A DNA stretch of 64,000 nt, from assembly GCF_005473905.2 (NCBI RefSeq), contig NZ_CP061336.1, positions 186,001 through 250,000 on the forward strand, written 5' to 3'. This DNA is from Ruminiclostridium herbifermentans. Lineage in GTDB: Bacteria > Bacillota > Clostridia > Acetivibrionales > DSM-1351. The translations under genes were made by a program, and so were the position numbers. The notes below the pieces were generated by a model, which ran no database searches, was not told where the DNA came from, and saw only the letters and a program-made list of their open reading frames with translations. Positions 24,021-45,320 of this stretch are shown one piece after another; the first letter of the stretch is position 1; each line of letters begins with the position of its first letter.

Positions 24021-24110
24021 TATAAATTTTGAGCTTATTTCAATAGCTATAAAGTTTGTATAAAATTGAAGGAGCGGTGGAAGGGCTATATAGTAGTATG
24101 ATAAAATGAA

Positions 24111-24203
24111 AACGAGGCATGAATATCTCTTGCCTCGTTGAAAAACCGCTGATATAATTAAGTTTTTCTAAAATCGAAAAATTTAATTTTAAATCTAGGC
24201 GTT
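24111..24203 (+). repeat. Structured repeat family, single short copy
   Basis: This 93-base copy has stem A (CGAGGCA / TGCCTCG) closing only about a dozen bases, then the core: AACCGC..., inner stem TTAAGTTTTTC / GAAAAATTTAA around the conserved loop TAAAATC, and the closing TCTAGGCGTT. It matches the family at 28123-28469 and 44595-45320 but lacks the extra hairpin between the stem A arms. It sits between the secreted coiled-coil gene and the response regulator. Confidence 0.75.
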
Positions 24204-24228
24204 AAAAAAGCTAATGGAAGATGATTAT

Positions 24229-27326: not shown

Positions 27327-28127
27327 ATGAGTGAAATGGTTAATGGCAACCTATTAATAATAGGAGGAGCAGAGGATAAGTGGGGTCAAAGTTCAGTTTT
27401 AAGGCATGCAATTGATATGTGCGGAGGCTCTAGTGCTAAAATAATTGTTTTAACCACAGCAACGCAAAAGCCTCAAGAAGTAGGAAAGGAATACAGAGAA
27501 GTATTTACACGGCTGGGAGTAGAGAACATAGATATTCTAAACATTGATAGTAGAGATGATGCCAATAAGGACTCTGTGGCACAAAGATTGTCAAGTGCAG
27601 CAGGTGTTTTTTTTACTGGTGGGGATCAACTGCGGATTACTAGTATATTAGGTGGGACAAAAACATATAACACCCTATTAGAAATATATCTACGAGGGGT
27701 ACCTATTATAGGTACAAGTGCAGGAGCATCAGCTATGAGCAGTACAATGATTGTGGATGGTAATAGTAATTCTGCTGCAAGAAAATGTACACTAGGAATG
27801 TCCCCGGGGCTGGGATTTTTGAATCAGGTGATAATTGATCAACATTTCGAACAAAGAGGAAGATTGGGCAGATTGCTTGTTGGAGTTGCCCAAAATCCAT
27901 CAATATTGGGTGTTGGAATAGACGAGGATACAGCGATTCAAGTTTATTCGAATGCTTCCTTTGAGGTGGTTGGAACAAATTGTGTAACAGTTATCGATGG
28001 TACTTCCATTAAAAAATCAAATGTGTCAGAACTTAATCCGGAAGAGATGATAGCATTGTCAAATGTTACAATACACGTCTTACCATGTGGTTTTCGCTTT
28101 GATTTAAATAGCAGAGCAGTGATATAG
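27327..28127 (+). CDS. cphB: Cyanophycinase
   Basis: A 266-residue serine peptidase of family S51 that cleaves cyanophycin into beta-Asp-Arg dipeptides. The nucleophile lies in GTSAGASAMS (Ser at about 131); VFFTGGDQ and the strongly conserved IIDQHFEQRGRLGR are also present. The ribosome site GGAGG precedes ATG. The stop codon is overlapped by the first structured repeat, and cyanophycin synthetase follows 380 bases later. The enzyme is cytoplasmic; no signal peptide is seen. Confidence 0.92.
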   Translation: MSEMVNGNLLIIGGAEDKWGQSSVLRHAIDMCGGSSAKIIVLTTATQKPQEVGKEYREVFTRLGVENIDILNIDSRDDANKDSVAQRLSSAAGVFFTGGDQLRITSILGGTKTYNTLLEIYLRGVPIIGTSAGASAMSSTMIVDGNSNSAARKCTLGMSPGLGFLNQVIIDQHFEQRGRLGRLLVGVAQNPSILGVGIDEDTAIQVYSNASFEVVGTNCVTVIDGTSIKKSNVSELNPEEMIALSNVTIHVLPCGFRFDLNSRAVI

Positions 28128-28300
28128 CGAGGCGAGAAAATATCTCTAATTCTCTTCAATAAGTGGAAGGTAATACGTTGATTCTTATAAGATTATAATA
28201 TCTCCATCCTCGTAAAATACTGCTAATATAATGAAATTTTTCTATAATCTTATCTACAATTTTTTCTACAATCGAAGAATTTCATTTGGAATCTAGGTAT
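28123..28300 (+). repeat. Structured repeat family, copy in cphB-cphA gap (1 of 2)
   Basis: It starts on the cphB stop codon with TATAGCGAGGCGAGAAA. Stem A is CGAGG / CCTCG (left arm 28128, right arm about 28200). The core outer stem is AATACT / GGTATT, against AACGCC / GGCGTT in other copies, so both sides have changed together. The inner stem GAAATTTTTC / GAAGAATTTC carries a repeated TTTTTTCTACAATC stretch, and ATCTAGG is conserved at the right end. Confidence 0.75.
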
Positions 28301-28469
28301 TATAACGAAGCGAGAACTTATTTGGGTTTCAGGAAGTGGGAATATATCCCGCCTCGTCGAAATACCGCTTTAGTGTCAGATGGTGAGAATATATTCCGCA
28401 TCGTTCACACGCTTATGATGCTGCTGAAATTTTTCTATAATCAAAAAATTTATATAAAATCTAGTCGTT
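28301..28469 (+). repeat. Structured repeat family, copy in cphB-cphA gap (2 of 2)
   Basis: A tandem second copy, joined at TATAACGAAGCGAG. Stem A is CGAAGCG / CGCCTCG with one mismatch. The core starts ATACCGC and has an extra segment (about 28375-28420) with a second CGCATCGTT, then GAAATTTTTCTATAATC and the closing AATCTAGTCGTTATAA. It is more diverged than the first copy. A ribosome site for cphA follows at once. Confidence 0.65.
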
Positions 28470-28507
28470 ATAAATTAACATTCTTCTAGACTTAGGAGGT
28501 CTTTTCA

Positions 28508-44538: not shown

Positions 44539-44594
44539 ATAATCATTTATAATGATTTGTATCATTGGAGCATATGAAAATATGCTCCAATGAT

Positions 44595-44816
44595 TATAAC
44601 GAGGCAAGAAAGTGTCCTCTGCTTCAAAAAGTGGAGAGTATCTCTTTTGATATAAGAAGGTAAAATATCTGCCTCGATGAAACGTTGCTAAATGTTATAA
44701 CTCGAAAATAAAGTATGTACGAACAAGGTGCATTTTCGAGCAACAAAACCACGAGTGGGTTTTAACGGTGTATGTGTTTTTCTACAATCGAAAAGTTTTA
44801 TGTTGAATATAGGCGT
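44595..44816 (+). repeat. Structured repeat family, tandem copy U1 (222 bp)
   Basis: It starts TATAACGAGGCAAGAAAG. Stem A is CGAGGCA (44600-44606) / TGCCTCG (44670-44676). The core has AACGTT at left and GGCGTT at right (G-U compatible). Between them lies an extra hairpin module, CTCGAAAAT (44701-44709) / ATTTTCGAG (44732-44740), and AAAACC/GGTTTT (about 44746-44764), which U3 and U4 lack. The conserved loop CTACAATCGAAAA and TATAGG follow. Confidence 0.8.
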
Positions 44817-45020
44817 TATAACGAGGCAAGAAAGTGTCCCCCGCTTCAAAAAGTGGAGAATATCTCTTCTGATATAAGAAGTTGAAAACAGCTCCCGCCT
44901 CGGTGAAACGCCGAAAAATGTAATAACAAGGTGGATTTTTGAGCAACAAAAACCACAAGTGATTTTGACGGTGTATAAATACTTATGTACATCGAAAAAT
45001 TTCATATAGAATATAGGCGT
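44817..45020 (+). repeat. Structured repeat family, tandem copy U2 (204 bp)
   Basis: It repeats U1 closely in the left half (GAGGCAAGAAAGTGTCCC, then CGCTTCAAAAAGTGGAGA). Stem A is CGAGGC / GCCTCG. The core outer stem is a perfect AACGCC / GGCGTT. It keeps the extra module (AACAAGGTGGATTTTTGAGC, AAAAACCAC) in a more decayed form than U1. It ends GAAAAATTTCATATAGAATA then TAGGCGT. Confidence 0.8.
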
Positions 45021-45173
45021 TATAACGAGGTAAGAAAGTTATATCTACTTATAAAAGCGGAGGGTACCTATTTTGAGTTATAAGAAGGTAATAGTATCTT
45101 CCACCTCGATGAAACGCTGCTAATGTAATGAAATTTTTCTACAATCGAAAAATTTCATATAGAATATAGGCGT
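45021..45173 (+). repeat. Structured repeat family, tandem copy U3 (153 bp)
   Basis: The copy without the extra module. Stem A reads CGAGGT (45026-45031) / ACCTCG (45103-45108), a paired change from CGAGGC / GCCTCG. The core is AACGCTGCTAATGTAAT, inner stem GAAATTTTTC / GAAAAATTTC around TACAATC, then ATATAGAATATAGGCGTT. Left-half sequence between the stem A arms differs strongly from U1, U2 and U4, while the stems are kept. Confidence 0.8.
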
Positions 45174-45320
45174 TATAACGAGGCAAGAAAGTGTCCCTGC
45201 TTCAAAAAAGTGGAGAGTATCTTTTTTGATTTAAGAAGATGAGAATATCTTCCGCCTCGATGCAACACCGCTAATGAAATAAAATTTTAAAATCAAAAAA
45301 TTTTATTTTAATCTAGGTGT
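45174..45320 (+). repeat. Structured repeat family, tandem copy U4 (147 bp)
   Basis: The last copy before the permease genes. Stem A is CGAGGC / GCCTCG. The outer core stem is AACACC / GGTGTT, both sides changed relative to AACGCC / GGCGTT, so pairing is kept. The inner stem is AAATAAAATTTT / AAAATTTTATTT, also changed on both sides, with loop AAAATCA. Closing sequence is AATCTAGGTGTTATAA. The ribosome site of the permease gene is 34 bases further. Confidence 0.8.

What the first reader, a model, noticed from the sequence alone, without database searches (positions are those of the whole stretch)
44595..45320. Four tandem copies of a structured, modular repeat between binding-protein and permease genes
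Four units (222, 204, 153 and 147 bp) join at TATAACGAGG. Each has stem A (CGAGGC/GCCTCG) and a core of nested stems (AACGCC/GGCGTT outside, an A/T stem around TAMAATC inside). Paired changes keep the stems: CGAGGT/ACCTCG in U3, AACACC/GGTGTT and a new inner stem in U4. U1 and U2 carry an extra hairpin module absent from U3 and U4. Selection on structure is the simplest reading: a small mobile element made of RNA- or hairpin-forming modules (comparable in style to BOX elements), here possibly used to protect the binding-protein mRNA and lower permease expression. I know of no described family that matches.
Basis: partly seen in the sequence, partly recalled or inferred. Interest (0 to 1): 0.85.

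Follow-up and report, generated by a model that had tools for sequence, protein, structure and literature searches.

The report
Hairpin mobile repeat across Firmicutes
The four tandem repeats are copies of a small, hairpin-forming jumping DNA element that occurs more than a hundred times in this bacterium's genome and recurs in many related bacteria, with identical fresh copies in one of them showing recent movement, although the enzyme that moves it is unknown.

Summary
In detail: four head-to-tail units at 44595-45320, sharing TATAA, with real compensatory changes. They belong to a family ("A"). A covariance model gives 133 matches in this genome, and finds A in 28 of 58 genomes of the order and 12 of 398 of a phylum sample (own included in both) and on one Selenomonas plasmid; no Rfam match. 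In 28 copies from other genomes 26 of 38 base pairs show two-sided changes; some lineages rebuild the inner hairpin with new sequence. In genome G418 the four copies compared are identical over 144 nt in unrelated surroundings: the element is mobile. Here copies are old (dispersed ones at most 80% identical). It has no terminal inverted repeats and no room for a transposase: two consecutive hairpins between TATAA sites. The first hairpin's loop takes different modules; U1/U2 carry a second repeat family ("B"). Orientation follows replication (112 of 132), also in divergent and convergent spacers (25 of 29); no neighbouring pair is inverted (29 of 29). This fits strand-specific, single-stranded-DNA mobility by a hairpin-recognising enzyme in trans (inferred; no partner found). 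The proposed role for binding-protein mRNA is not supported: a terminator-like hairpin upstream, present in relatives without the array, suffices.

The parts
44561..44594 (+). Terminator-like hairpin after the binding-protein gene (15-bp perfect arms, 4-nt loop); not part of the array
   Evidence: I2; counterparts in R. sufflavum and R. papyrosolvens spacers that lack the array; internal terminators after binding-protein genes described in PMC9045158 (passages)
44595..44816 (+). Element A copy U1 (222 bp), with nested B module
   Evidence: CM R2 44593-44822, 91.5 bits
44697..44770 (+). Element B module nested in U1
   Evidence: CM R3 74.1 bits (this copy, as L048:698-771, was among those the model was built from)
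44817..45020 (+). Element A copy U2 (204 bp), with truncated B module
   Evidence: CM R2 99.9 bits as G000 230815-231026
44907..44974 (+). Truncated element B in U2 (most of the 5' arm of its first hairpin lost)
   Evidence: CM R3 36.2 bits
45021..45173 (+). Element A copy U3 (153 bp), best-scoring copy of the window
   Evidence: CM R2 45019-45179, 156.8 bits (among the copies the model was built from)
45174..45320 (+). Element A copy U4 (147 bp), followed by TATAA 45321-45325
   Evidence: CM R2 143.6 bits as G000 231172-231326 (among the copies the model was built from)
24106..24208 (+). Isolated short A copy whose first hairpin lacks the H1/H2 module
   Evidence: CM R2 88.6 bits; sequence
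28121..28306 (+). A copy, first of a head-to-tail pair
   Evidence: CM R2 89.7 bits; sequence
28299..28474 (+). A copy, second of the pair
   Evidence: 79.9 bits as G000 214299-214474; 28325-28474, 62.3 bits
1608..1680 (+). Isolated element B (second family)
   Evidence: CM R3 36.6 bits, E 4.5e-5

Best explanation
Family A is a non-autonomous mobile element of about 100-230 bp. SHOWN: (1) its borders are TATAA on both sides; (2) it consists of two consecutive hairpins, P1 (CGAGGC...GCCTCG) and P2 (AACGCC...GGCGTT, with inner hairpin P3); in the 28 copies from other genomes both hairpins have the foot AACG...CGTT and are joined by GA, while in the window's units the 3' foot of P1 has drifted (CGATG or CGGTG); (3) the loop of P1 is a module site (nearly empty, H1+H2, or another insert), and the P3 side can hold the B element; (4) between species structure is kept better than sequence; (5) in other genomes it has moved recently (identical copies in unrelated surroundings). 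INFERRED: it moves as single-stranded DNA. A hairpin-recognising nuclease/transposase encoded elsewhere, working like the Y1/HUH enzymes of IS200/IS605 or of REP elements, binds the two like-footed hairpins on the strand exposed as lagging-strand template, cuts at TATAA and rejoins at another TATAA. Each inserted copy ends in TATAA and so offers a target for the next in the same orientation, giving head-to-tail arrays such as U1-U4; array growth and homogenisation also come from tandem duplication. After insertion copies mostly decay neutrally.
For: Mobility: in G418 copies L339, L350, L356, L360 are identical over 144 of 144 nt (6 of 6 pairs); in G329 three of four copies are identical over 139; flanks do not match (blastn of 4 pairs; identity runs at most 7 bases past the element). 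Orthologous spacers of R. sufflavum and R. papyrosolvens lack the array; G009 lacks two copies at one site and has one TATAATATT. No coding room: longest closed ORF inside 121 copies 53 aa, median 25. Structure: 18-copy alignment made without structure: 32 cells with two-sided change against 16.7 shuffled (0/500), slid controls 5-16; 12 of 38 pairs have such changes, which alone is not above shuffles (115/500). 28 copies from other genomes: 26 of 38 pairs (13.1 shuffled, 0/500), 85 cells against 23.3 (0/500) (alignment fitted to the model); 24 of 27 fold with z below -2, mean -4.2, without alignment. Foot. Strand: 112 of 132 copies co-oriented with replication; co-directional leading-strand spacers 51:9, lagging 2:2, divergent 17 of 21, convergent 8 of 8 (25 of 29 combined p 1e-4); dnaA at 307 +. 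Arrays: 29 of 29 neighbour pairs within 300 bp have the same orientation; of 23 abutting pairs 9 are each other's first or second best match (duplication), 10 rank 20th or worse both ways (separate insertions or strong decay). Y1 enzymes bind subterminal hairpins and act on the lagging-strand template (PMC6006769, passages).
Against: No enzyme partner was found: of 41 Y1-transposase matches in the genus the 30 held as loci (some cut by contig ends) have no A-like ends (best E 0.16), and Y1 number does not follow A copy number (G002: 13 Y1 matches, 1 A; G000: 1 and 133). TATAA on both sides also fits a 5-bp target duplication by another enzyme. Most genes are on the leading strand (242 of 298 ORFs), so part of the orientation bias could be transcriptional; divergent/convergent calls rest on my own ORF finder, and the 2.35 Mb terminus was set where element orientation switches (it lies near half of the 4.82 Mb genome). 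Co-directional lagging spacers give 2:2. In this genome there are no fresh dispersed copies (at most 80% identity over 110 nt or more), so strand bias and mobility were shown in different genomes. Intermediates (circles, cuts) were not testable.
Confidence: 0.55

Rival explanations
1. Host-selected RNA element: the hairpins act in mRNA (stability, termination, translation) and copies are kept for that, BOX-like or riboswitch-like. (Not exclusive of mobility.)
For: Strong covariation; none of 93 contexts inside a predicted ORF, 51:9 with co-directional leading-strand genes, median 83 nt to the next gene.
Against: G.T and A.C mismatches about equally common (54:38, p 0.12; 44:47, p 0.83), whereas selection on RNA should tolerate G-U more than A-C (general knowledge, no control RNA was run); copies are diverged and range from 0 to 133 per genome within one genus; identical G418 copies at unrelated sites point to spread. 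Downstream gene functions were not systematically annotated.
Confidence: 0.15
2. MITE moved by a DDE transposase with a 5-bp TATAA target duplication.
For: TATAA on both sides of young copies; non-coding; intergenic.
Against: No terminal inverted repeat beyond CG next to TATAA (consensus ends); variant pentamers on the left are mostly not matched on the right (read by eye); no inverted neighbours in 29 pairs; replication-linked orientation.
Confidence: 0.2
3. RNA-mediated copying: the structured transcript is reverse-transcribed at lagging-strand sites by an enzyme acting in trans, in the style of group II introns.
For: Conserved structure, exact ends, lagging-strand-template orientation.
Against: No group II intron or other Rfam family matched A copies above noise; no G-U over A-C bias.
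Confidence: 0.12
4. A purely local tandem repeat grown by slippage or unequal crossing-over.
For: U1 and U2 are each other's best match, U3 and U4 rank second and first for each other.
Against: 126 of the 133 matches lie outside the window and many in other genera.
Confidence: 0.02

Closest known systems
IS200/IS605 ends and their non-autonomous derivatives (Y1/HUH transposases)
   Same: No terminal inverted repeats, hairpins near both ends, short fixed target, lagging-strand-template orientation (Y1 features from PMC6006769, passages)
   Different: No A-like ends at the 30 genus Y1 loci held; two hairpins back to back; TATAA at both borders; module site in the first loop
REP/BIME elements and REP-associated transposases
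   Same: Many intergenic hairpin copies per genome, arrays, suspected mobilisation in trans
   Different: REPs are 21-65 nt with a GT[AG]G foot and inverted pairs (PMC6006769, passages); A is 100-230 nt, foot AACG...CGTT, hairpins and arrays in direct order
BOX, RUP and SPRITE of Streptococcus pneumoniae
   Same: Intergenic, structured, elements inserted into one another (PMC10969869, passages); B inside A is alike
   Different: BOX modularity is recalled, not looked up; A spans many genera and has a replication-linked strand bias; sequences were not compared
Internal terminators after binding-protein genes in cellulolytic clostridia (PMC9045158, passages)
   Same: Same kind of spacer; hairpin 44561-44594 fits that description
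   Different: The array is separate and absent from two relatives that keep the hairpin

Membership tests
MITE (DDE-derived) | Terminal inverted repeats | tested here: not met
   Only CG next to TATAA is mirrored
MITE (DDE-derived) | Target site duplication | tested here: inconclusive
   TATAA on both sides but could be target plus element end; empty sites too diverged to tell
IS200/IS605 derivative | Hairpins at both ends, no TIR | tested here: met
IS200/IS605 derivative | Y1 transposase element with the same ends | tested here: not met
   0 convincing of 30 Y1 loci in the genus (of 41 matches); other genera, including those with young copies, not tested
IS200/IS605 derivative | Orientation follows lagging-strand template | tested here: met
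   112 of 132; 25 of 29 in divergent/convergent spacers; one genome only
REP/BIME | Short palindrome with GT[AG]G foot, inverted pairs | tested here: not met
   Foot AACG...CGTT; 0 of 29 neighbour pairs inverted
BOX element | BOX sequence modules | not tested
   No BOX sequence was compared; resemblance recalled
Group II intron or any Rfam 15 RNA | Match to a covariance model | tested here: not met
   nothing above noise on A or B copies
cis-regulatory RNA/riboswitch | G-U tolerated over A-C in stems | tested here: not met
   54:38 (p 0.12) and 44:47 (p 0.83)
cis-regulatory RNA/riboswitch | Fixed class of downstream gene | not tested
   Genes beside copies were not annotated systematically

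The most novel reading that the evidence does not exclude
A previously undescribed class of single-strand mobile element: two direct hairpins with one common foot, recognised by an unknown hairpin-binding enzyme, whose first loop is a cassette site that exchanges hairpin modules, spread over Clostridia and Negativicutes and tied to the direction of replication.
Probability: 0.35. Interest if true: 0.8.

Novelty: new variant of a known kind. Interest (0 to 1): 0.62.

Why it matters
It is an apparently undescribed repeat, found in many genera of Firmicutes, that would be mistaken for regulatory RNA; its strong covariation shows that conserved structure need not mean host function at each site. 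Genomes with identical copies (G418, G329, G375) make the mobility mechanism directly testable, and the module-swapping hairpin loop is unusual. It also separates two things that the spacer mixes: a terminator-like hairpin shared with relatives and a later insertion.

Tried and rejected
Rfam at gathering and permissive thresholds: only noise on the elements. Y1 partner: searched, not found. Insertion into hairpin loops: two striking cases (1565337; Selenomonas L338, by eye) but no general excess (7 of 73 at score 14 or more, 5.0 expected). Closeness to terminators: 5 of 15 young and 10 of 113 own copies near a strong hairpin, controls 7% and 2%; controls lie largely in genes, so not used. G005 as clean empty site: rejected, it has larger deletions there. 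G.T versus A.C as a strand test: no bias (A; B 30:33). Viral contigs: 0 exact matches for three strict patterns, one of them with too narrow a gap, a weak test; the binding-protein scan there was not useful. Phage records: none for two queries. Plasmids: one record for two queries, none for a third, L317. A family-level search repeated the genus. A 105-aa minus-strand frame, 44688-45005, crosses U1/U2; no Pfam family. Hammerhead-like letters and attC likeness were considered from memory and not pursued.

Full report
WHAT IS THERE. Each begins TATAACGAGG and ends GGCGT or GGTGT; the last is followed by TATAA. Folding is better than shuffles for U2, U3, U4 and the 5' part of U1 (z -2.7 to -5.4), not for the 3' part of U1 (z -0.4).

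A GENOME-WIDE FAMILY. blastn with the array finds 64 places in the host genome (4.82 Mb, one contig; window = 186001-250000). A covariance model (R2) finds 133 matches (only 150 candidates were scored, so more may exist; one match is an antisense duplicate, leaving 132 used below). Seven lie in the window. The host is most likely a Ruminiclostridium: the nearest named relatives of the binding protein are in R. sufflavum (88%) and R. papyrosolvens (70%).

STRUCTURE. On 18 near-consensus copies aligned without structure, 86.2% of cells pair, and 32 cells carry two-sided changes against 16.7 in shuffles (0 of 500) and 5-16 in slid controls; the number of pairs with such changes (12 of 38) is not above shuffles on its own (115 of 500). 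On 28 copies from 27 loci of other genomes, which I selected and some of which share a genome, 26 of 38 pairs have two-sided changes (shuffled 13.1) and 85 cells (23.3). That alignment was fitted to the model, so the unaligned control matters: 24 of 27 copies fold with z below -2, mean -4.2, against 60 shuffles each by my own routine. H2 is weak (60.8% of cells paired). Some lineages keep P1, H1 and P2 but replace the P3 hairpin by a wholly different one (by eye). In those 28 copies P1 and P2 share the foot AACG...CGTT: AA before P1 28 and 28, TT after it 27 and 28, AA at P2 28 and 28, TT 28 and 27. In the window's units the 3' foot of P1 reads CGATG (U1, U3, U4) or CGGTG (U2) instead.

MODULES. 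The loop of P1 is long (H1+H2) or nearly empty (24106-24208; L051, L053, L318, L324). The extra hairpins of U1/U2 are a second, independent family, B: 59 matches in the genome, alone, in its own arrays, or inside A; 8 of its 23 pairs have two-sided changes (32 of 500 shuffles reach that), 23 cells against 8.6 shuffled (0 of 500). In A copies with B the 5' arm of P3 is replaced at what looks like the same junction (by eye), suggesting one origin followed by spread. No coding room: the longest closed ORF inside 121 copies is 53 aa, median 25.

DISTRIBUTION. Genus: 7 of 11 genomes have A, with 133, 89, 16, 15, 15, 1, 1 matches; four have none. Order: 28 of 58 genomes, 14 of 30 genera, own included, E 1e-4. 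Phylum sample: 12 of 398 genomes, 9 of 267 genera, own included, E 1e-5, 7 candidates scored per genome. Plasmids: one record, Selenomonas ruminantium pSRC1 (none with query L317). Phages: none. Viral contigs: none to three strict patterns.

MOBILITY. In G418, the four copies held (of at least seven) are identical over 144 nt (6 of 6 pairs); three of four in G329 (139 nt) and two of three in G375 (139 nt) likewise. blastn of the 3-kb loci for four pairs shows identity running at most 7 bases past the element. In G000 itself the copies are old: no dispersed pair exceeds 80.4% over 110 nt or more, while array neighbours reach 98%. The R. sufflavum and R. papyrosolvens spacers carry a hairpin but no array. 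At 899536-899860 the relative G009 lacks both copies and has a single TATAATATT. G005 lacks G003 copies too but with larger deletions, so those are not clean empty sites.

STRAND. dnaA lies at 307 +. 112 of 132 copies are co-oriented with replication. Of 107 arrays or singletons 93 had usable context: none inside a predicted ORF; co-directional spacers with leading-strand genes 51 with and 9 against, lagging-strand genes 2 and 2; divergent 17 of 21 and convergent 8 of 8 with replication; 25 of 29 gives p 1e-4. Gene calls are from my own ORF finder (80 aa or more) and the terminus (2.35 Mb) from where element orientation switches, near the half-way point. 121 of the 132 copies were held as sequence; 29 of 29 neighbour pairs within 300 bp have the same orientation. 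Of 23 abutting pairs, 9 are each other's first or second best match, 10 rank 20th or worse both ways and 4 lie between: arrays arise by duplication and perhaps also by separate insertions at the TATAA end, though strong decay would also lower ranks.

MECHANISM. Mobile element: shown by sequence. Single-stranded, strand-specific transfer by a hairpin-recognising enzyme in trans: inferred from absent TIRs, like-footed hairpins at both ends, fixed TATAA, replication-linked orientation and direct arrays, by analogy with Y1 enzymes (PMC6006769, passages). Against it: none of the 30 Y1 loci held from the genus has A-like ends and Y1 number does not follow copy number. G.T and A.C mismatches are about balanced (54:38, 44:47), as for neutral decay and unlike RNA-level upkeep (that expectation is general knowledge, not tested here on a control RNA).

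THE SPACER. The hairpin 44561-44594 has counterparts in two relatives without the array and fits the internal terminators described after binding-protein genes of cellulolytic clostridia (PMC9045158: abstract start, passages). The array is therefore not needed to explain unequal expression; whether it adds anything is untested.

NOVELTY. No Rfam 15 match. Paper searches listed no description that I recognised; one search listed 10 of 57 papers holding one of four short strings, all unrelated by title, the other 47 unseen. PMC3733652 has no mention of Clostridi, Firmicutes, TATAA or Selenomonas; PMC2267715 counts stem-loop clusters in two Clostridium species, without detail in the passages seen. 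Subscription papers were not searchable. I rate it a new variant of a known kind (hairpin-type non-autonomous elements), with the enzyme open.

Noticed in passing
1608-1680, 44697-44770, 44907-44974; L036, L039, L041, L043, L147: Second repeat family B (two hairpins, CTCGAAAAT...ATTTTCGAG then CAAAAACC...GGTTTTTG), 59 matches in the genome, 57 of 59 co-oriented with replication, in arrays of about 64- to 177-bp period; 10 matches in G009, which has no A.
   Followed up: partly
L043, L127, L167: A possible third repeat with ACCTCCACGA and CGTGGAGGTTA seen near B elements.
   Followed up: no
G000 C1, 18 places from 1309976 to 4157432: Eighteen weak DnaA-domain matches with the same score and 255-aa frame, probably one AAA+ insertion-sequence helper protein in many copies.
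   Followed up: no
L318, L319, L320: A roughly 4-5 kb stretch, 93-97% identical between genomes of three genera, carries the same short A copy; probably horizontally transferred.
   Followed up: no
L283 (G003 C2 56500-76400): Long pieces are 95% identical to G005 and 87-90% to G000, while the other region compared (L284) is 67-75% identical between G000 and G003 or G005; it carries A copies in G003 with degraded counterparts in G000.
   Followed up: partly
L034:2446-2677: T-box leader just under the Rfam threshold (91.7 of 93 bits).
   Followed up: no
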